From contig CANOBT010000038.1 in assembly GCA_947564305.1 (NCBI GenBank), positions 1 through 39,981 on the forward strand: a stretch of DNA of 39,981 bases, in the 5' to 3' direction. A program made the position numbers and the translations under genes. Shown in pieces: positions 4,792 to 16,265 of the stretch. This DNA is from an uncultured Lachnospiraceae bacterium (GTDB lineage Bacteria; Bacillota_A; Clostridia; Lachnospirales; Lachnospiraceae). Position 1 is the first letter of the stretch; every line of letters starts with the position of its first letter. Below the pieces are notes generated by a model. The model was not told the origin of the DNA. It did not search any database and worked only from the letters and a program-made list of their open reading frames with translations.

Positions 4792-7311
4792 CTAATACCT
4801 CAACCTCTCCACCACACTTCTCTCACAAATCTTCCGGTAGAACACAAGCGGCACCATCAAAGCCACCGCCAACAGAACCGGCAGACACGCCGCCACAGGC
4901 AGGAAGGTAAAGTGATATGTAAATGCCCACTGATTCTCCACAATCTCACTCTGGCAGAGAAGCCAGCTTAACAGATTTCCCGCCGTAGCTGTCAAAAGCA
5001 CCGCACTTCCAATGTACGCCGCACTCTCCCAGAGCAGCATTTTCTTCATCTGGCGGCCTCCCATTCCAACAGCGCTCAGCATAGCAAGCTCCTTCTGTCT
5101 TGTAAGGATTCCCGTGACCACAATATTCACGAAATTCAAAATCCCGATTGCCCCAAGAATCAGACTCAGGATTCCGCCAATCAGGGAATAGGTCTGCTTC
5201 GACTGCTGAAATTCTGCTTTCAGCGTTTCAAAGGACACATAAACCTTGTCAGACTCCTCCGCCAGTTGTGCGGTAATCCGCTCCGCCTCTTCCCTACGGG
5301 ATTTTTCTACATCATAGACCACGCTGAGAGGTTGTTTTTCCCCATAAAGCTCCATGAATTCCTGCTCCGGCAATATCACGTTAATCCCGAAATTAATATC
5401 TTGACGTGTGGTCATAGAAAGGGGAAGCCTCCCAATGGCCATCACCGTGTATTCCTTCTTCTGGCCGTCCTTTCCTTTCAATATGATAGAATCACCTGTC
5501 TCATAGAACCGTCCGGGATATCCAAAACGAGCGGCGGAATCCTCGCACACCACATAGTTCCCCTGTGCCCATTTCTCAGCATCAAATGTCCCTTCCTGAT
5601 ATTCTGCATGTTCTACCAGTCCTCCGGTAGCCGCATAGACCTGAACCCACTCTTCCTCCCCATGGTTTTCAAAAAATCCAGGTGCATCCCCCTTCGCTGT
5701 TTCTTCTTCTATCCATTTTAGCGCATCTTCAGAAAGCTGTACCATATTCTCCTCGGCATAGACCTTCTCAAATCTCTTCAGTCCCGGGAGGTGCCTGACT
5801 GTCTCCTCGAATTCGGCGTCGATTCCTTCCAGATTCTTGTTACCTATCCCTGCCACTGATGCAATCGTCCAGTCTGTCACCTCAAAATCACCGTTGGTCT
5901 GAGACTCCACATACCGTTCCAGGTCAAACCCTCTGAGGATGGTAAAGGTGGTATTCAAAAGGGTCAGACTCAAAGACAAGGACACAATGACCAGGAATGC
6001 CTTTTTCCCGTCGCGGCGTAAATTTCTGACTCCCAGAGTCAGAGGCGCATCCTTTTGCATGGAGACCATTTTTTTCACACGTGTTTTTCTATGCTTACGC
6101 CTGCTCACGTTCCCTCCATTATAATGAACGGCCTCAATCGGTGAGACACTCGCCGCTGCCCGTCCGGGAGAGCGAAAGCTGATATATACCGTCAGCAGAC
6201 TGAACACAGCCGCCCCAAAAAGTACCAACGGAGATACGTGATAATCTCCAAATCCTCTGATTCCGTCGAGTTCACCTGTCACCGCCGGCAGCAGCGTCTT
6301 CCCCACAGCATATCCCGCCAGAAGCCCCAGTGGAATCCCGATACACGATAATCTCATTGCCTGTCTGAAAACAATCTTCTTAAGCTGTTTGCCGGAAGCC
6401 CCGATTGTTTTCAATAATCCATAAAACTGAATATCCTGAGTCACTGAAATATAAAATACATTGTAAATAATCAGATATCCGGAAACAAGTATGGCTGCCA
6501 GAAAAATCACACCGGCCAGCAGCACACCGGGGTCCATCTGAAAATTTGTATATACCGGATTGGTCCCGCCCCGCGTATCTCCCGGCAGTCCGGAGCGCTC
6601 CAGAAGGTCATCCAGTTTCCCTTCCAGATTCCAGGTATTCGAAAAATCAATTTCTGCCATCACACACCCCTCATAAGGCGTATCCTCTGTAAATGATGTC
6701 ATCAGAGTCGGGGCTGTTTCCTCACTATAAGCCTTTGACACCCATATTTCCTGCGCCGGTGCAAGAGGGTCCCCCTCCCAGACACCACATATGGTAAAGG
6801 TATCCTCATGTAGACATCCATTGACCTCTATGGGAAATACAATCTCGCTCCCCAGTTCATCCGAAATCCCCATTGCCTCCAGGACAATGTCAGAAACCGC
6901 TATCTCCATCTTTTCCCGCGGCATACTTCCTTTCGTCGGATAAGAGCGAAATGACTGTGCCACATAGTCCTCGCCATACCGGACTTCCGTATTGATTTTC
7001 TGCAGGCTTTCATCCGCCCCGGTTCCCGTGACAATGGAATACCCGATTTTTTTATAACCGCCGGCCTCTTTCACCCTTTCATATTCCGGCATTGACAGAA
7101 ACTTGATAGATGCCTGGTTCACACCGCCCTGCTTACGCATCAGAGACTGCTGTGCCTGCTCCAGAACACCGCCGCCGAGTGTAAATAATGCAGAAAACAG
7201 AATTGTAGTCAGAATAATCGCGCCAATCGCAATACCGTTTCGCTGCCTGCTCTTCTTCATCTGCCGCCCTGCAAGCAATCTAAGAGCTTCTTTATTTCTC
7301 ACCTGGAACAT
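4792..7311 (-). CDS. FtsX-type ABC transporter permease (MacB/Bce-like)
   Basis: The chosen start at 7311 gives 839 residues (MFQVRNKEALRLL). AGGGGG precedes it, and it overlaps the end of the ATPase gene by 20 bases. The protein has an N-terminal membrane helix (GIAIGAIILTTILFSALF), a large extracytoplasmic domain, a first group of FtsX helices (GVLLAGVIFLAAILVSGYLI onward), a cytoplasmic linker rich in Arg/Lys, another helix, a second extracytoplasmic domain and a final FtsX group (LIGGILSLILGAIGILNFV to the C-terminus). The double MacB_PCD/FtsX plan fits mechanotransmission transporters that export or counter antimicrobial peptides, lipids or envelope stress. Coupling to a two-component system argues for a cell-envelope stress role. 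No substrate is assigned. Confidence 0.88.
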   Translation of the reverse strand: MFQVRNKEALRLLAGRQMKKSRQRNGIAIGAIILTTILFSALFTLGGGVLEQAQQSLMRKQGGVNQASIKFLSMPEYERVKEAGGYKKIGYSIVTGTGADESLQKINTEVRYGEDYVAQSFRSYPTKGSMPREKMEIAVSDIVLEAMGISDELGSEIVFPIEVNGCLHEDTFTICGVWEGDPLAPAQEIWVSKAYSEETAPTLMTSFTEDTPYEGCVMAEIDFSNTWNLEGKLDDLLERSGLPGDTRGGTNPVYTNFQMDPGVLLAGVIFLAAILVSGYLIIYNVFYISVTQDIQFYGLLKTIGASGKQLKKIVFRQAMRLSCIGIPLGLLAGYAVGKTLLPAVTGELDGIRGFGDYHVSPLVLFGAAVFSLLTVYISFRSPGRAAASVSPIEAVHYNGGNVSRRKHRKTRVKKMVSMQKDAPLTLGVRNLRRDGKKAFLVIVSLSLSLTLLNTTFTILRGFDLERYVESQTNGDFEVTDWTIASVAGIGNKNLEGIDAEFEETVRHLPGLKRFEKVYAEENMVQLSEDALKWIEEETAKGDAPGFFENHGEEEWVQVYAATGGLVEHAEYQEGTFDAEKWAQGNYVVCEDSAARFGYPGRFYETGDSIILKGKDGQKKEYTVMAIGRLPLSMTTRQDINFGINVILPEQEFMELYGEKQPLSVVYDVEKSRREEAERITAQLAEESDKVYVSFETLKAEFQQSKQTYSLIGGILSLILGAIGILNFVNIVVTGILTRQKELAMLSAVGMGGRQMKKMLLWESAAYIGSAVLLTATAGNLLSWLLCQSEIVENQWAFTYHFTFLPVAACLPVLLAVALMVPLVFYRKICERSVVERLRY

Positions 7312-8068
7312 CTGCCGGCACCCCCTTTCTGAAATCATCAGAACCAGAGCCGACGCGGTCTGCCCCTTTATGTCTTTTTTCCGAAAATCCCCTGCTTCCG
7401 GTCTGAATCCGACCATCCTCGATTCGGATAATCCGGTCTGCCATCTGTGCAATGTCCGGATTATGGGTAATCATCACCATGGTCTGCTGAAACCGCTGGT
7501 TACTTGCCTTTAGAAACGCCATCACATCCTGGCTGGTCCTGCTGTCCAGATTCCCGGTGGGCTCATCCGCAAGCAAAATTGAGGGCTTGCTGGCAAGAGC
7601 CCTTGCAATCGCCACTCTCTGCTGCTGTCCCCCGGAAAGCTGATTCGGCAGATTTTCAAGCTTTTCCTCGATTTTTAAAAGTCCCGCAATCTCCCCGAAA
7701 TAATCCTCGTCAATCTTTCCTCCGTCCAACAGAATCGGAAGCACAATATTTTCACGTACATTCAGAGTCTGCACCAGATTATACTGTTGGAAAACGAACC
7801 CGATACTGCGCCTGCGAAATACCGCCAGTTCCTCATCATTCATACGAGATAATTCTTTATCTCCTACCCTCACGCTTCCCTCGGTTGGACTGTCCAGCCC
7901 TCCCAGCATATGAAGCAGTGTAGATTTCCCCGAACCGGATGTACCTACGATCGCTGCAAATTCCCCATAATAGATTTCCAGATCAATCCCATCCAACGCC
8001 TTTGTTACATTTTCTCCTGCGCTATAATACTTTTTCAGACCTTTAGCCTGCAGAACAATTGATTTCAT
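7292..8068 (-). CDS. ABC transporter ATP-binding protein (MacB/LolD/BceA type)
   Basis: Start 8068 (MKSIVLQAKGLKKYY) is preferred because AGGAGG lies eight bases upstream; longer starts lack a ribosome site. The 258-residue ATPase has Walker A GTSGSGKST (residues 42-50), Q-loop FVFQQYN (Gln94), signature LSGGQQQR (144-151), Walker B ILLADEP (164-170) and the H-loop MITH. The sequence class with TGNLDSRTS is the LolD/MacB/BceA subfamily that pairs with FtsX permeases, and the permease gene follows with a 20-base overlap. The C-terminus carries an unusual polar tail of about 30 residues after the last conserved strand. This tail is encoded where the next ribosome site had to be fitted in. Confidence 0.93.
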   Translation of the reverse strand: MKSIVLQAKGLKKYYSAGENVTKALDGIDLEIYYGEFAAIVGTSGSGKSTLLHMLGGLDSPTEGSVRVGDKELSRMNDEELAVFRRRSIGFVFQQYNLVQTLNVRENIVLPILLDGGKIDEDYFGEIAGLLKIEEKLENLPNQLSGGQQQRVAIARALASKPSILLADEPTGNLDSRTSQDVMAFLKASNQRFQQTMVMITHNPDIAQMADRIIRIEDGRIQTGSRGFSEKRHKGADRVGSGSDDFRKGVPADVPGEK

Positions 8069-8161
8069 GGTCTTGCCCTCCTCTTGCTCTTGATGACATT
8101 TATTAAGCGTAAGTGCGCTGATGCGCACGTAGGTCATCAAACCTTCGCTTTGGTGACAGTT

Positions 8162-8214
8162 ATTATAGCAGCGAAAAGTTACAATCCCCTCACAGAAATC
8201 TCACAATGTTGTGA
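8162..8214 (-). promoter_or_regulatory. Response-regulator operator and promoter for the ABC transporter genes
   Basis: On the minus strand a perfect inverted repeat TCACA-N4-TGTGA (8201-8214) lies about 33 bases upstream of TATAAT (8162-8167). No good -35 hexamer is present, as at activated promoters. The pattern TNACA-N4-TGTNA is the type bound by BceR-like regulators. The operator call is inference; the repeat and -10 are directly visible. The rest of 8069-8288 shows no gene. Confidence 0.55.
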
Positions 8215-8288
8215 CAATTTATAACCACTTGCAGCGCAGGTGATTGCCTGCTTGCCCGCATCTTTTTTCATACGCTCCTTTACATTAC

Positions 8289-9299
8289 TTAAAGAAACTG
8301 CACCGTAAATGTACTCCCCATTCCAGGCATAGAATTGACCGTCACATAGCACCCCTGGGCCTCCAAAATCTGTCTGGTCAGATATAAGCCTACCCCGGCT
8401 CCAGGCAGATTGTGCACCTCAGGAGCCCGGAAAAATTTGGAAAACACGGCTCCCTGCAATTCCTCCGGTATTCCCATTCCATCATCCGTAATCATGAGTC
8501 TCACTCCGGTTTCCCGGATTTCTGCACGAACCTCTACGTTTCCGTTCGCCGGTGTATATTTTACCGCATTATCCAATAGATTAAAAATCGCCTCCTCCGT
8601 CCATTTCGGATCATGCCGCACCATGAGAGGCTGCGGACATTCTACCAGAAATGCAATCTCTTTCTGCTCTGCCGCAGCGCTCACGCTCAACAGTGCACTG
8701 GCCAATGTCTGCGCAAGGTCAGCACGCTGGGGAACAAGCTGGATAGCGCCGCTCTCTAAACGGCTCATTTTTATGATAGACTGAATCAGAAAATCCATCT
8801 TATCCGCCTGATGTAACGTTCTCTCCAAAAATTCCTTCTGCTTTTCCCCCGCCATCTCTCTCTCAGAGAGCAGTTCCAAATCCATTTTTATATTTGCCAC
8901 AGGCGTCTTAATCTGGTGAGAAAGGTCCGCAATCATTCCCTGCATGGCGCGTTTCTCATCCTCCGCACTGGCCTGCGCGAGCCGCAGCGCATCATACAGT
9001 CTCGACAGCTTCGCTACAAAACGAGAAAAGACACTTTCATGATCCTGTACTTCAGGAAGACGGACCTTTTTCTTGGTCGAAAGCATCTGCTCCATATCTT
9101 CATGAATCTCATCAAAAAAATCCGATACCTTCCGCTGGTAAGCCTGGAACAGCAGAAAATAAAGGATTCCCCCAATGGCCAAGACAATATACGCCGCCCA
9201 ATAAAGCTGAAAAAAGGCCAATACTGGAATAGATAGCAGCATTCCGATACAAATTCCTGCTCCCAAACGATTCAAACGTCTGAATGAAAAACTACTCAT
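8289..9299 (-). CDS. Sensor histidine kinase, short-loop (intramembrane-sensing type)
   Basis: Start 9299 overlaps the regulator stop as ATGA and has GGAGG six bases upstream, giving 336 residues. Two membrane helices (about 11-31 and 35-52) are joined by only a few residues. There is no extracellular sensor domain and no clear HAMP, the plan of intramembrane-sensing kinases that detect flux through a partner ABC transporter. The dimerisation/phosphoacceptor motif is DLSHQIKTP with His128. ATP-binding boxes follow: N-box FNLLDNAVKYT, G1 DDGMGIP and G2 GAGVGLYLTRQI. Its partner regulator is immediately upstream and the ABC transporter downstream, so it probably controls that transporter. The signal is unknown. 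Confidence 0.92.
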   Translation of the reverse strand: MSSFSFRRLNRLGAGICIGMLLSIPVLAFFQLYWAAYIVLAIGGILYFLLFQAYQRKVSDFFDEIHEDMEQMLSTKKKVRLPEVQDHESVFSRFVAKLSRLYDALRLAQASAEDEKRAMQGMIADLSHQIKTPVANIKMDLELLSEREMAGEKQKEFLERTLHQADKMDFLIQSIIKMSRLESGAIQLVPQRADLAQTLASALLSVSAAAEQKEIAFLVECPQPLMVRHDPKWTEEAIFNLLDNAVKYTPANGNVEVRAEIRETGVRLMITDDGMGIPEELQGAVFSKFFRAPEVHNLPGAGVGLYLTRQILEAQGCYVTVNSMPGMGSTFTVQFL

Positions 9300-9976
9300 G
9301 GCTGTCCTCCGTTCCACAGATATCCCATCCCATAAACAGTCTGAATATATTTATGCTTTCCCTTTTCCAGCTTTCCCCTGAGGCGAGCGATATTTACCGT
9401 CAGTGCATGCTCATCAACGTAATTTCCATTCGCATCCCACAGCTTTTCCATGAGCACCTGACGTGTCAGAACCATTCCTTGATGGTCTATAAACAACTTC
9501 ATTAATTTGTATTCCGTAGGAGTCAAAATCAAGACTTTCCCGTCCGCAGTCACATTTGCCGTATCAAAATCCACTGTCAGATACCCGTCTGAATACAGAT
9601 TCAGCTTCGCATTTCTATCCGCCCGCTTCAGCACGGCCTGAATCCGTCTGTGAAGCAGCCCGATACTGAAAGGTTTCGTGATATAGTCATCCGCCCCACA
9701 GTCAAATCCTCTCATTTCATCCAGCTCCATATCACGGACCGTCAGGAAAATGACCGGAACATCCCTTAATTTTTTCATCTGCCTGCAAAGCGTAAAACCA
9801 TCATTGTCCGGCAGATTACCGTCCATCAAAACAAGTTCCATCTCCTGTGCCGTAAAAACCTCCAATGCCTGTGAAGCGGTGAGTGCAGAATACACCTCAT
9901 AGCCTTCCTCCTGCAAATCATATACAAGGCCGTCGTTCAAGCCTTTGTCATCTTCAACGATTAGAATTTTTTTCAT
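9296..9976 (-). CDS. OmpR/PhoB-family response regulator
   Basis: Start 9976 (MKKILIVEDD) has AGGAG seven bases upstream; the frame is open further to 10000 without a ribosome site. The 226-residue protein has a receiver domain with acidic pocket Glu8-Asp9-Asp10, phosphoacceptor Asp52 in MDGNLP, switch position in LTVRD and Lys101 in TKPF. A C-terminal winged helix follows (LTPTEYKLMKLF, then VNIARLRGKLEK and YGMGYLW). The stop overlaps the kinase start. It should be phosphorylated by that kinase and activate the ABC genes from the inverted repeat at 8201-8214 (inference). Confidence 0.94.
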   Translation of the reverse strand: MKKILIVEDDKGLNDGLVYDLQEEGYEVYSALTASQALEVFTAQEMELVLMDGNLPDNDGFTLCRQMKKLRDVPVIFLTVRDMELDEMRGFDCGADDYITKPFSIGLLHRRIQAVLKRADRNAKLNLYSDGYLTVDFDTANVTADGKVLILTPTEYKLMKLFIDHQGMVLTRQVLMEKLWDANGNYVDEHALTVNIARLRGKLEKGKHKYIQTVYGMGYLWNGGQP

Positions 9977-10044
9977 AGCAATCTCCTGTTTGCCTTCCAT
10001 AAGTGTCTGGCAAATTTATTTTTCGCAAAAAGAATTTCGTTCTA

Positions 10045-10350: not shown

Positions 10351-11322
10351 TCAGTTGAATCTTCCGGGCTCCATGTCCTGAAATACGGAAAACAGCCTGC
10401 GTACAGCCAGGTCTGAATTCACCGAAGTACAGATTGCAATCTCTTCACGGTCCAGATTCGGAATAAATTCCGTATCGTAAAGTATCATTCCCTGATACTT
10501 CTCGTTCTCATACTCGACTCCTGCGCGCAGCATTTTATACTCTCCAAGGGATGGGTCCTCTGCAATCAGGACCGCCAGCGGGTCATGCACTACGCAGGAA
10601 GATACCCTCCCGGCGCTGACCCGGTAAAATTCAAAATACAGTTTTAACACATTTTGGATATACTCCGCAATCTGTCTGCAATCCTCTTTGAAATAGGTAC
10701 AAACGTTCTGGATTTCCCTTTCTGTGATAAATGTTTTCAGCGTCACATCCAACCCTACCAGTGTCAGGCGGAACCCTGCCTTAAATACCATATCCGCAGC
10801 CTTCGCATCTCCCTGGATATTCGCCTCCGCGTAAGGATTCACATTTCCGGTCTCCATAAGGGTTCCCCCCATACTGACCACCTTTTTAATCTTCTTCGGG
10901 AGGGCCGGGTCTTTCTGCAGAGCCAGCGCCAGATTCGTCATACGTCCGGTGGTCACAACCACCAGTTCCCCGTCCAATTCATCCGCCTTCCGGATAATAA
11001 AATCACATGCTTCCTCTTCCACCGGCTTCTGAGCGCTTTCCGGGAGTTCTACATTTCCAATCCCGTTGTCTCCATGGATATACGCCGGAGCCGATTCAAA
11101 TATCCCCTCGATGGATTTGTTTGCTCCCACTGCAACCGGTACATCGTAGCCACATTTTGACAATGCGATCAGCCGGATAGAATTTTCTGCTGACTGGAGC
11201 GCATTGGAGTTCCCAAAGCAAGTCGTAATGCCTTCCACAATCAGATTAGAAGATCTTAAGGCATATAAGATTGCAATGGAATCATCCACCCCTGTATCAG
11301 CGTCAATAATAATGTGTCTCAT
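10351..11322 (-). CDS. Inosine/uridine-preferring nucleoside hydrolase family protein
   Basis: The start ATG 11322 is preferred because AAGG of AAGAAGGTG lies a normal distance upstream; an in-frame GTG at 11331 sits inside that ribosome site. The 323-residue enzyme carries the family fingerprint DADTGVDD (residues 8-15) that holds Ca2+ and the ribose. GDNGIGN, the MGG strand with NPYAEANIQGD, and the C-terminal HDPLA Asp follow. It cleaves the N-glycosidic bond of ribonucleosides to a base and free ribose in the cytoplasm. The ribokinase gene lies 49 bases upstream in the same direction, so the two form a nucleoside-to-ribose-5-phosphate operon. Base preference is not predictable here. Confidence 0.92.
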   Translation of the reverse strand: MRHIIIDADTGVDDSIAILYALRSSNLIVEGITTCFGNSNALQSAENSIRLIALSKCGYDVPVAVGANKSIEGIFESAPAYIHGDNGIGNVELPESAQKPVEEEACDFIIRKADELDGELVVVTTGRMTNLALALQKDPALPKKIKKVVSMGGTLMETGNVNPYAEANIQGDAKAADMVFKAGFRLTLVGLDVTLKTFITEREIQNVCTYFKEDCRQIAEYIQNVLKLYFEFYRVSAGRVSSCVVHDPLAVLIAEDPSLGEYKMLRAGVEYENEKYQGMILYDTEFIPNLDREEIAICTSVNSDLAVRRLFSVFQDMEPGRFN

Positions 11323-11380
11323 ATTTTTCACCTTCTTTCACTTATAACCAACTTGTACATCAGACAGCCTGACGCCGTCT

Positions 11381-12277
11381 TTATCTTGCTTTTAAAAACG
11401 CTTCCACCTCCTCATGTGCTGGCACGCCTTCTGCCGCACCCTTTCTGCTTACGGCAATCGCTGCGGCCGCACTTGAACGACTCAAAATCTCCTCCCAGCC
11501 CATTCCTTCTGCAAGGCCGGCAATAAAATATCCGCAGAATGTATCGCCCGCTCCTGTCGTGTCTACTGTGTCCACCGTATAAGCCTTCTGGAATACGGTA
11601 ACATCTTTTTTCACAAAGTATGCTCCCTTTTCTCCCAGAGTAATTACAAATCCGGCATCTGGAAATTTTTGTTTCAGTGCATCTATCATATCTTCCGGCT
11701 TTTCTGAATCTGTTCCGGCCAGCATGCCGGCCTCCACTTCATTCACCAGAAAATAATCCACTTTCTGCAAACTGTATGTATAAAGCGATTCGTTGACCGG
11801 CGAAGGGTTGAATGCTACAACCAGCCCCTTTTCTTTCGCTTTCTCAATCGCAAAATTCACATTGGTAATCTCGTTTTGAAGAAGGATCATATCTCCTTGT
11901 CCAAAATGTTCCAGGACAGAAAGGATGTATTCCTGATCCACCTGGTCGTTCGCACCACCGCTGATGATGATATTATTCTGTCCGCTCTCATCAACCTGTA
12001 TGATCGCATGCCCGCTGGTGCCTTCCGTCATTTTTATATAGTCCGTACATGCCCCAAAGCCCTTCAGGATGTCCAACAGCACCTGCCCGTCTTTTCCCAC
12101 CATGCCTGCATGATATGCGTCCGCCCCGGCCCGCAGCAGCGCCACTGTCTGGTTCAGCCCCTTTCCTCCGCAATGCTGCTCATAGGCCAATGCCTTAATG
12201 GTTTCCTTCGGCTGGACAAACTGATTTACAAAATAAGTTTTATCAATATTCAGCGACCCAAGATTTAATACTTTCAT
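11381..12277 (-). CDS. rbsK: Ribokinase (PfkB family)
   Basis: This 298-residue kinase has an N-terminal LGSLNIDKTYFV sugar-binding strand, HCGGKGLNQ (residues 35-43), Glu in LLQNEIT, NE in LVNEVE, and DTTGAGDTF (239-247) with catalytic Asp245 and the anion hole. It phosphorylates D-ribose to ribose-5-phosphate in the cytoplasm. Pairing with the nucleoside hydrolase downstream argues for ribose from nucleosides as the substrate, since no ribose transporter gene is present. GGGAG precedes the ATG. It has a near-consensus promoter and lies divergent to a LacI-type regulator that itself contains a ribokinase-like domain. Confidence 0.92.
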   Translation of the reverse strand: MKVLNLGSLNIDKTYFVNQFVQPKETIKALAYEQHCGGKGLNQTVALLRAGADAYHAGMVGKDGQVLLDILKGFGACTDYIKMTEGTSGHAIIQVDESGQNNIIISGGANDQVDQEYILSVLEHFGQGDMILLQNEITNVNFAIEKAKEKGLVVAFNPSPVNESLYTYSLQKVDYFLVNEVEAGMLAGTDSEKPEDMIDALKQKFPDAGFVITLGEKGAYFVKKDVTVFQKAYTVDTVDTTGAGDTFCGYFIAGLAEGMGWEEILSRSSAAAAIAVSRKGAAEGVPAHEEVEAFLKAR

Positions 12278-12294
12278 TCTGATTTCTCCCTATG

Positions 12295-12308
12295 CGAAAA
12301 TTTTTTCG
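12295..12308. promoter_or_regulatory. Inverted repeat downstream of the ribokinase promoter
   Basis: CGAAAA-TT-TTTTCG is a perfect inverted repeat between the -10 and the ribokinase start, in the right place for a repressor site. Its A/T-rich make-up means chance is possible. Confidence 0.35.
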
Positions 12309-12329
12309 GAAAACTTTTTCTCAACTCAT

Positions 12330-12358
12330 ATAATAAACGATAAAACAAAAAATGTCAA
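12330..12358 (-). promoter_or_regulatory. Promoter of the ribokinase-nucleoside hydrolase operon
   Basis: TTGACA (12353-12358, minus strand) and TATTAT (12330-12335) have a 17-base spacer, a near-perfect sigma-A promoter. Such strength suggests control by repression. Confidence 0.8.
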
Positions 12359-12510: not shown

Positions 12511-14409
12511 ATGACAATCAAAGAAATCGCCCAGCTTGCCGGAGTATCTATTTCCACCGTATCCAAAATCATGAACAACAAAGACGAGAGCATCAGCGCA
12601 GAGACCCGGGAGCATGTAATGAAGATTATAAAAGAATATAATTACCGTTCCTATGCTTCCGCCCTCCCGCCTACGAACAAATCCTTTACCATAGGAGTCA
12701 TCCTGAGGGCTGCATCCGGAATCCAAACCCTCGGCCCCGGGCTCCTTGCCGCCGCAAGCCGGCTTGGATATACGCTCCTTCTGCGTGACAGCGCTCTTTC
12801 CATTGAATATGAACGGAAACATATTTCCTTTTTGCTGCAGTCCCATGTGGACGGAATCATCTGGGAGCCTGTTTCTGAAGAAAGCATGGAATTTATAAAA
12901 TCATTTGAAAAAGCAGAGATGCCATTTATCCTCACCGGTATAGAGCAGGCAGGGGCATACAATCTTGATTTTAAAGAAATGGGCTATTTTGCTGTTGAAA
13001 AGCTGATAGAAAATCAGCACGAAACTATTGCGTGCCTGTCGGGGAATGGTTTTCACGAAGCCGCGTTTTATGACGGCTACAGGCAGTGCCTGTTGGACCA
13101 TCATCTGCCAATCCATGAAGAATTATCCTCTCAAAACATAGAGGATACCTTTTATTGGATTCCGGAGCATACATTCAGCGGCATTGTCATTTTCCATTAT
13201 GATGAGGCGCTGCGGCTATATGAGAAAGCCGGGACCAGACACTATTCCATCCCCACGGAGCTTTCTGTCATTTCCCTGCGGGAGAACGCAGAAAAATATT
13301 CTGCATACCCTCCCATTTCCTCCATCCCGATTCCCTATCAGAAATTCGGAGAAAAATTGATGGAAGAGGTGATTCGGATTGCAGAGAAAAAGGAGGAAGA
13401 GATTTCTTTCCGGACTCCCCTCACATTAAACCACATGTTATCGGTTGCCGTCCCATATAACCTGAGGTTAAAAAGCGTGATTTGCCTGGGCAGCATTAAT
13501 ATTGACAATTACCTGCACTTTCAGACCCTGCCCCATACCGGAAAAGCCGTCACCACAGAAACCTCTTCCGTCTATGTAGGCGGGAAATGTACCAACGAAG
13601 GGATAGGGGTTTCCATGCTTGGCCACAACGTATCAATGATTGGAAAAATCGGTAATGACGCGGACGCAGATTTGATTTATAAAACCCTGAGAAATCATCA
13701 GATCGATACCTTTGGAGTCAAACGAAGCAACGGTTACAAAACCGGACAGGCTTATATTTTTGTACAGAATGACGGAGAGTCTATGATTTCCATGATGGCA
13801 GGCGCCAACCAGGCGGTCACAGAGAACGACATTGAGGAAAATGAGCGCCAGTTCATGCGGGCGAGTTATTGCCTCATGCAGACAGAGATTCCATTTCCGT
13901 CAATCATCCGCGCCTGTGAACTGGCGAAAAAGCACCATGTAACAACCGTCTTAAAACCCAGTGCATGTACCAGCCTGCCGGATGCCCTGCTGAGACAGAC
14001 AGATATCCTTGTCCCCAATTTAGATGAGTTAAATGCCATTTCCCCGGGCAGCCATTCTCTGGAGGAAAAGGCAGCCTCCCTTTTATCTTATGGAATCCAG
14101 ACAGTGATTGTCACACTGGGTGCACAGGGATGTTATATCAAAAGTGCAGAAATAGAAACCTATCTTCCCGCCGTCCCTTTTACCACAATTGATAATACGG
14201 GAGCCGGAGATGCTTTCATCAGCGCACTGGTATCCTATCTGCTCTATGGATATGATATTCTTTCCGCAGCAAAAATTGCTTCCTTTGCAGCCGGATTCAG
14301 CACCACTACACAGGGAACAGTCCAAGCGCTGATTGACAAAGACACTCTGGAAACACTGATACGTCAAAGGGAACCCAAACTATTGAAAAAGGAAGAACCA
14401 CTATCATGA
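12511..14409 (+). CDS. LacI-family regulator fused to a ribokinase-like PfkB domain
   Basis: Start 12511 (MTIKEIAQLAGVS) has GGGAG upstream and is the normal LacI N-terminus; the frame is open further upstream without a site. The 632-residue protein has three parts. Residues 1-60 are a LacI helix-turn-helix and hinge (IAQLAGVSISTVSKIMNN). Residues about 63-315 are a periplasmic-binding-protein-like sensor domain. Residues about 320-620 are a full PfkB domain: LGSINIDNYL, VGGKCTNEG, Glu in MQTEIP, PNLDE, and DNTGAGDAF (561-569) with catalytic Asp567. Key kinase residues are kept, but the usual GGKGAN is GGKCTN. It probably binds the ribokinase/hydrolase control region. Whether the kinase part is catalytic or only senses sugar or ATP is unknown. 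The stop overlaps the SDR start (ATGA). Confidence 0.88.
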   Translation: MTIKEIAQLAGVSISTVSKIMNNKDESISAETREHVMKIIKEYNYRSYASALPPTNKSFTIGVILRAASGIQTLGPGLLAAASRLGYTLLLRDSALSIEYERKHISFLLQSHVDGIIWEPVSEESMEFIKSFEKAEMPFILTGIEQAGAYNLDFKEMGYFAVEKLIENQHETIACLSGNGFHEAAFYDGYRQCLLDHHLPIHEELSSQNIEDTFYWIPEHTFSGIVIFHYDEALRLYEKAGTRHYSIPTELSVISLRENAEKYSAYPPISSIPIPYQKFGEKLMEEVIRIAEKKEEEISFRTPLTLNHMLSVAVPYNLRLKSVICLGSINIDNYLHFQTLPHTGKAVTTETSSVYVGGKCTNEGIGVSMLGHNVSMIGKIGNDADADLIYKTLRNHQIDTFGVKRSNGYKTGQAYIFVQNDGESMISMMAGANQAVTENDIEENERQFMRASYCLMQTEIPFPSIIRACELAKKHHVTTVLKPSACTSLPDALLRQTDILVPNLDELNAISPGSHSLEEKAASLLSYGIQTVIVTLGAQGCYIKSAEIETYLPAVPFTTIDNTGAGDAFISALVSYLLYGYDILSAAKIASFAAGFSTTTQGTVQALIDKDTLETLIRQREPKLLKKEEPLS

Positions 14410-15137
14410 GAAAAAAAACGGTATTGATCACCGGCGCCTCCCGCGGCATCGGCCTTGCCTGCGCGTCCCGATTCGCCCGGGCCGGATATTTTGTATTCAT
14501 AAACTGTAATCATTCCATAAGAGAGTTATATGAGGCCAAAAAACAATTTCTATCAGACGGATATCTTTGCGAAGCTTTCCCGGGCGACGTTGGAAATCCG
14601 GATGATGTTTCCAAAATATTTGCTAAAATCCAAACGCTTTGCGACGGGGTGGATGTACTGGTAAATAATGCCGGAATTTCCTATGTCGGACTTTTAACGG
14701 ATATGACAGACCAGGACTGGGACAGCATCCTGCGCACCAATCTGTCCTCCGTATTTTACTGTTCCCGCGCGGCAATCCCCCACATGGTATCGCAAAAAAG
14801 CGGAAAAATCATCAACATTTCTTCCATGTGGGGACGGGTCGGAGCATCCTGTGAAGCTGCCTATTCCGCTTCCAAGGCCGGCGTAAACGGACTGACGATG
14901 GCCCTGGCAAAAGAGCTTGCCCCTAGCGGTATCCAAGTCAATGCCATTGCCTGCGGCGCCATTGATACCGCCATGAATGCCTGCTTCACCGATGAAGAAC
15001 GAAGCGCACTGGCGGAAGAGATTCCGGCGGGACGGTTTGGAACCCCGGAAGAAGCAGCCGACCTGGTCTACGGACTGGCTGAAAAACACCCCTATCTCAC
15101 CGGACAGGTAATCGGACTGGACGGGGGATATATTTAA
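14406..15137 (+). CDS. Short-chain dehydrogenase/reductase (FabG-like)
   Basis: This 243-residue classical SDR overlaps the fusion regulator by four bases, so the two are translationally coupled. The Rossmann motif TGASRGIG (residues 9-16) binds NAD(P), NNAG lies at 87-90, and the catalytic triad is Ser139/140, Tyr153 and Lys157 (YSASK). The C-terminus ends LTGQVIGLDGGYI, as in FabG-like enzymes. The Arg after TGAS suggests NADPH use. Many such proteins are annotated 3-oxoacyl-ACP reductase, but coupling to a sugar-type regulator/kinase makes a sugar or polyol dehydrogenase more likely (inference). The substrate is not determined. Confidence 0.9.
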   Translation: MRKKTVLITGASRGIGLACASRFARAGYFVFINCNHSIRELYEAKKQFLSDGYLCEAFPGDVGNPDDVSKIFAKIQTLCDGVDVLVNNAGISYVGLLTDMTDQDWDSILRTNLSSVFYCSRAAIPHMVSQKSGKIINISSMWGRVGASCEAAYSASKAGVNGLTMALAKELAPSGIQVNAIACGAIDTAMNACFTDEERSALAEEIPAGRFGTPEEAADLVYGLAEKHPYLTGQVIGLDGGYI

Positions 15138-15335: not shown

Positions 15336-16265
15336 ATGAGAAAACGAGCAGTCATCGCACTAGGACACCGCGCACTGGGCACCACGCTCCCTGAACAGAT
15401 GGTGGCCGTAAAAAACACCGCAAAGTCAATCGCAGATCTTTTAGAAGAAGGATACCAGATTGCCATTACACACAGCAATGCCCCACAGGTAGGAATGATT
15501 CACACCGCCATGAATGAATTTGGAAAATCCCATCCCAACTACACTGCAGCCCCCATGTCCGTGTGCTCGGCTATGAGCCAGGGCTATATCGGATATGACC
15601 TGCAGAACGGAATCCGGGAAGAATTACTCAATCGCGGGATTTACCGTACCGTCAGTACTATACTGACGCAGGTCGTTGTGGACCCCTATGACGAAGCATT
15701 TTACACTCCTACCAAAGTTCTCGGGCGCTATATGTCTGTCCAGGAGGCCAACGAGGAACGCAAAAAGGGAAACTATGTCATTGAAGAGCCTGGCAAGGGT
15801 TACCGCCGGGTCGTATCTGCCCCCAATCCGGTAGAAATTGTAGAACTGGATGCTGTGAAAGCCCTGTTAGATGCCGACCAGCTCGTGATTGCTGCCGGCG
15901 GCGGCGGAATCCCGGTCATGAAGCAGGACAACCATTTAAAGGGCGCAAGCGCTGTTATTGAAAAAGACCTTGCTGCCGGAAAACTCGCGGAGGGCGTGGA
16001 TGCGGACATTCTGATCATCCTGACCAGTGTAGATCAGGTCTGCATCAATTTCGGAACGGACACAGAAGAAAAGCTTGGAACAATTACCGTAGAACAGGCA
16101 AGGCAGTATATGGAACAGGGACATTTTGGAATCTATAATATGTTCCCGAAATTCCGCGCCGCCGTAGAATTCATTGAAAAAAGAGAAGGACGCAGTGCCC
16201 TCATCACCTCATTCGACAAAGTCAAAGACGGGGTACGCGGAAAAGCAGGAACGACCATCCAATAG
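15336..16265 (+). CDS. Carbamate kinase family protein
   Basis: This 309-residue amino-acid-kinase fold enzyme interconverts carbamoyl phosphate plus ADP with carbamate plus ATP. Family features include THSNAPQVG (usual form NGPQVG), SQGYIGYDLQN, the TQVVVDPYDEAF insertion region, the PTKVLGRYM lid, IAAGGGGIPV, KGASAVIEKDLA and ILTSVDQVCINFG. The N-terminal ALGHRALGTT replaces the usual ALGGNAL, so one Gly-Asn of the phosphate loop is His-Arg. This points to a divergent clade. No arginine deiminase or ornithine carbamoyltransferase genes are nearby. The neighbours are nucleoside genes, so a role in ATP gain from base degradation is possible. It has its own promoter and terminator. Confidence 0.88.
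   Translation: MRKRAVIALGHRALGTTLPEQMVAVKNTAKSIADLLEEGYQIAITHSNAPQVGMIHTAMNEFGKSHPNYTAAPMSVCSAMSQGYIGYDLQNGIREELLNRGIYRTVSTILTQVVVDPYDEAFYTPTKVLGRYMSVQEANEERKKGNYVIEEPGKGYRRVVSAPNPVEIVELDAVKALLDADQLVIAAGGGGIPVMKQDNHLKGASAVIEKDLAAGKLAEGVDADILIILTSVDQVCINFGTDTEEKLGTITVEQARQYMEQGHFGIYNMFPKFRAAVEFIEKREGRSALITSFDKVKDGVRGKAGTTIQ

What the first reader, a model, noticed from the sequence alone, without database searches (positions are those of the whole stretch)
12511..14409. LacI regulator fused to a complete ribokinase-like kinase
One uninterrupted frame encodes a LacI helix-turn-helix, a sugar-binding sensor domain and a PfkB domain that keeps NID, GGK..N, the substrate Glu, PN and GAGD motifs (Asp567). 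LacI proteins normally end after the sensor domain. The fusion sits divergent to a stand-alone ribokinase and nucleoside hydrolase. It could read sugar twice, or be a kinase whose turnover sets repression, like trigger enzymes or ROK proteins but built from different families. GGKGAN is changed to GGKCTN, so the domain may bind without catalysis.
Basis: partly seen in the sequence, partly recalled or inferred. Interest (0 to 1): 0.72.

Follow-up and report, generated by a model that had tools for sequence, protein, structure and literature searches.

The report
Repressor that borrowed a ribokinase sensor
A bacterial sugar-type repressor in this window is permanently joined to a ribose kinase; across its family the repressor's own sugar pocket has lost its usual residues while the kinase's ribose pocket is kept, which suggests that an enzyme has been turned into the sensor of a gene switch for using nucleosides or ribose.

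Summary
In detail: 12511-14409 is one open frame (632 aa) with a LacI helix-turn-helix, a LacI-type sensor domain and a full PfkB/ribokinase domain. It is a family: 238 of the 240 relatives listed in two searches carry both HTH and kinase (my reading), and in the trees tried each half has one origin. Of 27 loci 23 have a kinase, nucleoside hydrolase, Bmp or CUT1 transporter gene nearby; 26 of 26 carrier genomes also hold a separate ribokinase-like gene. A palindrome, in tandem in the window, lies just past the divergent operon's -10 box. New here: in 108 of 109 non-redundant fusions three LacI pocket-signature positions are all changed, against 0 of 46 control regulators, whereas the ribokinase's ribose-contact residues are kept; the Gly of GAGD is changed in 78 of 109 fusions but in 0 of 83 stand-alone kinases. 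The window copy keeps GAGD. Best reading: a local repressor whose sensing has moved to the kinase domain, with catalysis weakened in most lineages and possibly kept here. My searches of an open-access library found no paper on it.

The parts
12511..14409 (+). LacI-PfkB fusion protein, 632 aa
12514..12648 (+). LacI helix-turn-helix (residues 2-46)
   Evidence: PF00356, 61.5 bits
12685..13410 (+). LacI-type sensor domain (residues about 59-300) with altered pocket: Phe186 (13066-13068), His229-Tyr230 (13195-13200), Arg257 (13279-13281)
   Evidence: PF13377; pocket comparison
13411..13470 (+). linker, residues about 301-320, the least conserved of the stretches compared
13471..14325 (+). PfkB/ribokinase domain (residues 321-605): Asp332, GGKCTN 13579-13596, Glu459 13885-13887, GAGD 14200-14211
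   Evidence: PF00294 157.1 bits; best fold match E. coli ribokinase with ribose and ADP, 1rkd; residues
12292..12311 (+). operator-like palindrome, copy nearer the ribokinase start (1 mismatch to TTNNGAAAANNTTTTCNNAA)
12305..12324 (+). operator-like palindrome, second copy 13 bp away (0 mismatches)
12330..12358 (-). promoter-like site of the divergent operon, TTGACA-17-TATTAT (11 of 12); the palindromes begin 5 and 18 nt past its -10 box
   Evidence: consensus matches, not proof
11381..12277 (-). stand-alone ribokinase-like kinase
   Evidence: TIGR02152 236.3 bits, below its cut-off of 299.65
10351..11331 (-). nucleoside hydrolase
   Evidence: RihA/RihC/UriH models, best 176.8 bits, below their cut-offs

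Best explanation
A local repressor of a nucleoside/ribose-use operon. Its LacI half binds the tandem palindrome at the divergent promoter and gives the dimer frame, but no longer holds the usual sugar site; the fused ribokinase domain is the sensing module. Ribose (probably with ATP) closes the kinase lid, and this is passed through the short linker to the LacI core and releases DNA. Phosphoryl transfer is not the main task: in most lineages the anion-hole glycine has been replaced while the ribose-contact residues and the catalytic Asp were kept. In the window's own branch GAGD is intact, so some turnover may remain. Shown by sequence: architecture, one origin in the trees tried, kept and lost residues, neighbourhood, conserved palindrome. 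Inferred: DNA binding by this protein, ligand identity, loss or slowing of catalysis, the allosteric path.
For: LacI pocket, against 46 control regulators with the same sensor domain: basic residue at position 186 in 42 of 46 and 0 of 109 fusions; Asp230 40 of 46 and 0 of 109; Asp257 36 of 46 and 1 of 109; all three absent in 0 of 46 and 108 of 109; the same with the 40 controls that have a recognised LacI HTH, 36, 36, 30 and 0 of 40. Kinase: Asp332, Gly357, Gly358, Asn362, Asn503, Glu506, Asp561 in 109 of 109; Asp567 108, Lys359 105, Glu459 104 of 109. Gly566: 31 of 109 fusions, 83 of 83 stand-alone kinases (Fisher p about 1e-28, which ignores kinship; at least 10 changes G/non-G on the tree). 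The kinase half is better conserved than the sensor: mean pairwise identity 0.48 against 0.28-0.32; columns at 95% or more 45 of 285 against 11 of 242. Ten listed relatives, all 563 aa, the six aligned 99-100% alike (so about one variant), lack about 70 aa of the sensor domain but keep HTH and kinase. A separate ribokinase-like frame of 200 bits or more is in 26 of 26 carrier genomes, so flux need not depend on the fusion. Palindrome: likelihood score 100 against 23-28 in six shuffles; the two promoter sites plus one weaker hit give 3 in the window, where 100 shuffles average 0.61 and none reaches 3; 8 of 24 upstream regions show it phased to the predicted -10 box, 5 of them as the tandem pair.
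Against: The window copy keeps GAGD and all catalytic residues looked at; 31 of 109 relatives keep that Gly. Changes at Gly566 are only to Ala, Cys or Ser, which keep the backbone amide, so slow catalysis cannot be excluded anywhere. Asp567 is nearly invariant, which also fits a working enzyme. In the larger clade (75 of the 109) the sensor pocket is re-modelled rather than decayed: Phe186 63, His229 66, Tyr/Phe230 70, Lys/Arg257 65 of 75, so it may bind another ligand. Some control regulators also lack single pocket residues (basic 186 in 4, Asp230 in 6, Asp257 in 10 of 46). Four relatives (P0051, P0063, P0064, P0079) have GGR and Glu459 to Gly, that is, an altered ribose site too. 12 of 24 upstream regions have no palindrome at two mismatches or fewer, and genome-wide the pattern is only mildly above its control (73 against 46 over 10 genomes). 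Binding of the palindrome by this protein is inferred. Model m4eb89df297b2 (pLDDT 85, pTM 0.58) does not fix the arrangement of the domains, and the model of the shortened variant is poor (pLDDT 63).
Confidence: 0.5

Rival explanations
1. Working repressor-kinase with product sensing: the kinase domain makes ribose-5-phosphate, and the re-modelled LacI pocket (Lys/Arg257, His229) reads that phosphorylated product, so that turnover sets repression.
For: Catalytic Asp567 in 108 of 109; GAGD intact in the window and its nearest relatives; basic residue at 257 in 67 of 109 fusions and 0 of 46 controls; conserved new pocket residues in the larger clade.
Against: Gly566 is changed in 78 of 109 and, within the larger clade, the basic 257 residue occurs with G, A, C and S at 566 alike. 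The second clade has Gly at 257 in 30 of 34, and ten near-identical relatives of a member of it have lost part of the sensor domain. A separate kinase was found in 26 of 26 carrier genomes.
Confidence: 0.22
2. Bifunctional protein of convenience: an ordinary repressor joined to an extra ribokinase for co-expression, with no coupling.
For: The ribose and nucleotide residues looked at are nearly all kept; neighbours are often enzymes and transporters of the same pathway.
Against: The sensor signature is lost in 108 of 109, so the LacI half is not ordinary; a second kinase makes the activity redundant in 26 of 26 genomes; the Gly566 pattern is specific to the fusion.
Confidence: 0.12
3. The re-modelled LacI pocket senses a different ligand (for example a base or nucleoside) and the kinase domain is only a binding or oligomerisation module.
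For: Conserved Phe186/His229/Tyr or Phe230 in 63, 66 and 70 of 75 members of the larger clade; nucleoside hydrolase in 18 of 27 neighbourhoods.
Against: The sensor domain changes faster than HTH and kinase; ribose residues of the kinase stay nearly invariant, which a scaffold would not need.
Confidence: 0.13
4. Assembly artefact, frameshift product or pseudogene.
For: Two interrupted copies were seen in other genomes (G124; the second copy in G003).
Against: Intact relatives at 45-82% identity in the list, one origin in the trees tried, conserved domains and neighbourhood.
Confidence: 0.01

Closest known systems
LacI/GalR-family sugar repressors (RbsR, CcpA, LacI, PurR)
   Same: HTH and sensor domain by Pfam; best solved relatives of this part are CcpA and, lower, RbsR, PurR and LacI; palindromic operator-like element at a divergent promoter
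   Different: A complete ribokinase domain follows the sensor domain; basic 186, Asp230 and Asp257 are all missing in 108 of 109. Residue roles (LacI Arg197/Asp274, PurR Arg196/Asp275; position 230 next to LacI Asn246) are recalled
Ribokinase RbsK (PfkB family; E. coli 1rkd)
   Same: Fold (TM 0.92 over the target) and ribose/ATP residues
   Different: Fused to a repressor; below the ribokinase equivalog cut-off (239.2 against 299.65; fusion domains reach at most 285.1); the family has lost the Gly of GAGD in 78 of 109
ROK repressors (NagC, Mlc) (recalled)
   Same: Sugar-kinase fold used as the sensor of a transcription factor
   Different: Different kinase fold and different HTH; no ROK model among the Pfam matches
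MocR regulators (GabR, PdxR) (recalled)
   Same: HTH joined to a complete enzyme domain that serves as ligand sensor
   Different: GntR HTH plus aminotransferase; here LacI HTH, a changed LacI core and a ribokinase
HTH-PfkB proteins such as YeiI, and NadR (recalled)
   Same: Kinase joined to a DNA-binding domain
   Different: Other HTH types and no LacI sensor core; not compared here

Membership tests
LacI/GalR family | LacI-type helix-turn-helix | tested here: met
   PF00356 61.5 bits, cut-off 27
LacI/GalR family | Periplasmic-binding-protein-like sensor domain | tested here: met
   PF13377 44.6 bits, cut-off 26.5
LacI/GalR family | Usual pocket-signature residues (basic 186, Asp230, Asp257 in window numbering; common in the family, not strictly required) | tested here: not met
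   All three absent in 108 of 109 fusions, window included (F, Y, R), and in 0 of 46 controls
LacI/GalR family | Palindromic operator bound by the protein | tested here: inconclusive
   Palindrome found; binding not testable here
Ribokinase (RbsK) | PfkB domain with ribose-contact residues and catalytic Asp | tested here: met
   PF00294 157.1 bits; Asp332, Lys359, Asn362, Glu459, Asp567 present; their roles are recalled from E. coli RbsK
Ribokinase (RbsK) | Score over the curated ribokinase cut-off (TIGR02152, 299.65 bits) | tested here: not met
   239.2 bits
Ribokinase (RbsK) | Anion-hole motif with Gly before the catalytic Asp | tested here: met
   GAGD in the window protein; only 31 of 109 in its family have that Gly
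Ribokinase (RbsK) | ATP-dependent phosphorylation of ribose | not testable with these tools
   needs an assay
ROK family | ROK domain | tested here: not met
   no ROK model among the six Pfam matches
Trigger enzymes | Both catalytic and regulatory activity, coupled | not testable with these tools
   needs assays
MocR family | GntR HTH plus aminotransferase domain | tested here: not met
   neither among the Pfam matches

The most novel reading that the evidence does not exclude
A LacI-family repressor has handed over sugar sensing to a captured ribokinase: the LacI pocket was given up around the time of the fusion, and the kinase is held in a state where ribose and ATP binding, or a deliberately slowed turnover tuned by the residue before the catalytic Asp (Gly, Ala, Ser or Cys), sets how long DNA stays free. 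This would be a further, independent way, besides ROK and MocR, of turning an enzyme into a gene switch, with graded catalytic states across living relatives.
Probability: 0.35. Interest if true: 0.78.

Novelty: new variant of a known kind. Interest (0 to 1): 0.62.

Why it matters
It would show a repressor family, long the textbook case of sugar sensing by a binding-protein domain, replacing that domain's role with an enzyme, and it offers a natural series (GAGD, GAAD, GACD, GASD, GGAD, a shortened sensor domain) in which to test how a metabolic enzyme becomes a regulator. It also suggests a ribose/nucleoside regulator for relatives of Hungatella and other Clostridia, where the few named examples are called ribokinase, PfkB family carbohydrate kinase, substrate-binding domain-containing protein or LacI regulator (names).

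Tried and rejected
GGKGAN to GGKCTN as a sign of a dead kinase: not accepted, because Lys and Asn are kept and the two middle positions vary in the fusion family, although they hardly vary in stand-alone kinases. A broken gene: rejected for the family. Split genes as the ancestral state: the split copy of G124 lies inside the fusion clade and comes from a frame change in an A run, so it is no ancestor. Genome-wide regulon by pattern: with one mismatch allowed there were 73 places against 46 for the reversed-pattern control over 10 genomes, no excess in 3 of the 10, so only the local sites are used. Structure of the shortened relative: low confidence, not used.

Controls and what was dropped. 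LacI pocket: a first control set (23 proteins recovered by my script out of 30 loci) was biased towards the best PF13377 matches; a weaker set was added. A first attempt recovered only 9 of 20 weak ones plus 3 neighbours, and 6 of those 12 lacked both Arg186 and Asp257; with all 20 recovered by coordinates and Lys counted as basic the combined control is 46, and the three-position test is the headline. The HTH type of the controls was checked afterwards: 40 of 46 have a recognised LacI HTH; 43 are left at 72% identity, also with none lacking all three. Kinase: the 84 stand-alone rows included the split fusion half of G124; without it there are 83 (19 from loci, the window's own, and 63), Gly in 83. 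Fusions: 109 non-redundant from 265 at a 72% threshold; only the 120 best proteins of each search were available out of 679 and 569, so the sample leans to relatives of the two queries. Operator: of 27 loci, L042, L046, L056 and L058 were not recovered by my start pattern; the 24 regions are 23 loci plus the interrupted second copy of L040.

Literature: searches returned no paper; 15 (40 of 48 listed), 16 (1), (20 of 44 listed; 20 of 54 listed) showed, in the listings, no paper on a LacI-PfkB protein; the library lacks most subscription journals, so absence is weak evidence. PMC4052901 (LacI regulons): term searches and passages only, no 'fused', 'fusion' or 'pfkb'. PMC555942: passages only, nothing relevant. 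PMC6240065 and PMC10339645: passages on the anion hole only. Two searches for the LacI pocket residues gave nothing usable, so their roles are recalled.

Full report
WHAT IS THERE. The frame 12511-14409 encodes 632 residues with a LacI HTH (2-46), a LacI-type sensor domain (162-297 by Pfam) and a PfkB domain (321-605). The closest NCBIfam model for the C-terminal part is ribokinase (TIGR02152, 239.2 bits, under its cut-off of 299.65; a second ribokinase model 212.4), far ahead of the next kinase type, IolC (103). The AlphaFold2 model (pLDDT 85, pTM 0.58) matches E. coli ribokinase with ribose and ADP best (1rkd, TM 0.92 over the target). Divergent to it lie a ribokinase-like kinase and a nucleoside hydrolase.

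FAMILY. A protein search gave 679 relatives, the best at 82% identity; a second search started from a distant member gave 569; 120 of each are listed, and by my reading of the tables 238 of these 240 carry both LacI HTH and PfkB. In a draw from the family of the Hungatella genome G003 (Lachnospiraceae, recalled) 23 of 299 genomes carry it at E<=1e-100, among them G002 and G003, known before, and the split copy of G124. In a phylum-wide draw of 398, 6 match at E<=1e-70: full-length in three genomes, one of them the centre itself, and over the kinase part only in three more. In a tree of 64 kinase domains the 34 fusions form one side of a branch with support 100; in a tree of 57 LacI parts the 34 fusions separate from 23 controls with support 99. 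In a larger, simpler tree of 149 the only exception is the split copy of G124, which lies inside the fusions. So one fusion event fits both halves. These are quick trees with some long branches (L042 above all).

NEIGHBOURHOOD. Over 27 loci (window included) a stand-alone PfkB kinase was detected within 9 kb in 18, a nucleoside hydrolase in 18, a Bmp/PnrA-type binding protein in 11, a CUT1-type permease in 8 and an ADP-ribosylglycohydrolase in 3; 23 have at least one of kinase, hydrolase, Bmp or CUT1. Names rest on one or a few representatives of each cluster; one CUT1 partner cluster had no Pfam match and is not counted. My ORF caller missed the kinase of L038, which one search shows. Of the four loci with none, L045 and L048 hold under 330 bases upstream, L046 has none in 9 kb, and L060 has a transporter whose permease resembles ribose permeases. 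All 26 carrier genomes that I had hold a separate ribokinase-like frame of 200 bits or more; 14 hold one over the ribokinase cut-off, while no fusion domain reaches it (best 285.1).

OPERATOR. A palindrome-constrained motif search on 24 upstream regions found TTAgGAAAATATTTTCcTAA; at width 16 the score is 100 against 23-28 in six shuffles. The shuffles were of two-base blocks and the loci are related, so part of this is shared ancestry. In the window two copies lie 13 bp apart, 12292-12311 and 12305-12324; the pattern with up to two mismatches occurs three times in 40 kb (the third, with two mismatches, at 14608), against a mean of 0.61 and none of 100 shuffles with three. A TTGACA-17-TATTAT site faces the ribokinase operon, and the palindromes begin 5 and 18 nt after its -10 box. 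With the best-scoring promoter taken in each region, 8 of 24 show this phasing (3-6 or 16-20 nt), 5 with both copies; 12 of 24 have no site at that stringency. The place is where a repressor would block the start of transcription. That this protein is the one that binds is inferred.

THE LACI POCKET. In window numbering three positions lie in or next to the usual LacI sugar pocket (roles recalled: Arg of LacI 197/PurR 196, the Asp after Asn246 of LacI, Asp of LacI 274/PurR 275). The controls are 46 regulators with the same sensor domain: 23 strong and 20 weak matches from five of the same genomes, plus 3 neighbours. A basic residue at 186 is found in 42 of 46 and 0 of 109 fusions, Asp230 in 40 and 0, Asp257 in 36 and 1; all three are missing in 0 of 46 and 108 of 109. 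With the 40 controls that have a recognised LacI HTH the numbers are 36, 36, 30 and 0. The spacing around the three positions looks the same in both groups in the rows printed. In the larger clade (75) a new set is conserved, Phe186 (63), His229 (66), Tyr/Phe230 (70), Lys/Arg257 (65); in the second clade (34) it is Ile/Val186 (32), Ser229 (26) and Gly257 (30). Ten listed relatives, all 563 aa, lack about 70 residues of the sensor domain's second half but keep HTH and kinase; the six aligned are 99-100% alike, so they count as about one variant.

THE KINASE SITE. In 109 non-redundant fusions Asp332, Gly357, Gly358, Asn362, Asn503, Glu506 and Asp561 are invariant; Asp567 is kept in 108, Lys359 in 105, Glu459 in 104. 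Gly566, next to the catalytic Asp in the anion hole, is Gly in 31, Ala in 49, Cys in 18 and Ser in 11, against Gly in 83 of 83 stand-alone kinases, with at least 10 changes between Gly and non-Gly among the fusions on the tree. Passages read in PMC6240065 say that main-chain amides of the anion hole contact the beta-phosphate and point to a role in steadying the gamma-phosphate, and a passage in PMC10339645 links this motif to the anion hole and to Asp255. Replacing the glycine should hurt transfer more than sugar binding; this is inference. The window copy and its nearest relatives have GAGD. Four relatives with GGR and Glu459Gly have an altered ribose site as well.

READING. The residues that mark sensing in a stand-alone sugar repressor are changed, and the residues with which a ribokinase binds ribose are kept, in one protein family beside nucleoside/ribose genes and with a second kinase in the genome. 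The simplest account is that sensing moved to the kinase domain. Whether the window's protein also turns over ribose is open; the intact GAGD says it may. The main rival is product sensing by the re-modelled LacI pocket. Neither ligand binding, DNA binding nor activity could be tested here.

KNOWN OR NOT. Enzyme-derived sensors are known (ROK repressors, MocR; recalled), so the kind is known; a LacI core carrying a ribokinase as its likely sensor was not found described in searches of the open library (listings only, some cut), which lacks most subscription journals.

Noticed in passing
window 14406-15137 (+): A short-chain dehydrogenase gene overlaps the end of the fusion gene by 4 nt, so it is probably in the same transcript; it just passes the cut-off of an EF-P 5-aminopentanone reductase model (YmfI, 240.9 against 238) and that of one FabG subfamily model (225.2 against 222). 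No other ORF of the fetched loci clusters with it.
   Followed up: partly
L057 8614-10583 (genome G124): The fusion is split in two overlapping frames by a frame change in a run of about ten A between sensor and kinase; the kinase half still groups inside the fusion clade. It may be an error of sequencing or a slippery site.
   Followed up: partly
L040 3616-5554 (genome G003): A second, interrupted copy of the fusion about 10 kb from an intact one, again divergent to a ribokinase-like gene.
   Followed up: no
L040, L041, L051: ADP-ribosylglycohydrolase-type proteins (475-714 aa; Pfam checked on the one of L051 only) lie in or near the divergent operons of three loci, which hints at ADP-ribose as another ribose source.
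   Followed up: no
fusions P0051, P0063, P0064, P0079: A small branch has GGR for GGK, Glu459 to Gly and Ser at 566, so even the ribose site is altered.
   Followed up: no
window 4792-10000 (-): An ABC permease (886 aa), its ATPase (282 aa), a sensor kinase and a response regulator lie in a row, resembling a Bce-type peptide-sensing module (my reading of the translations, not searched).
   Followed up: no
window 15336-16265 (+): Carbamate kinase gene downstream of the SDR gene (297.4 bits, over the cut-off of 266 of a subfamily model).
   Followed up: no
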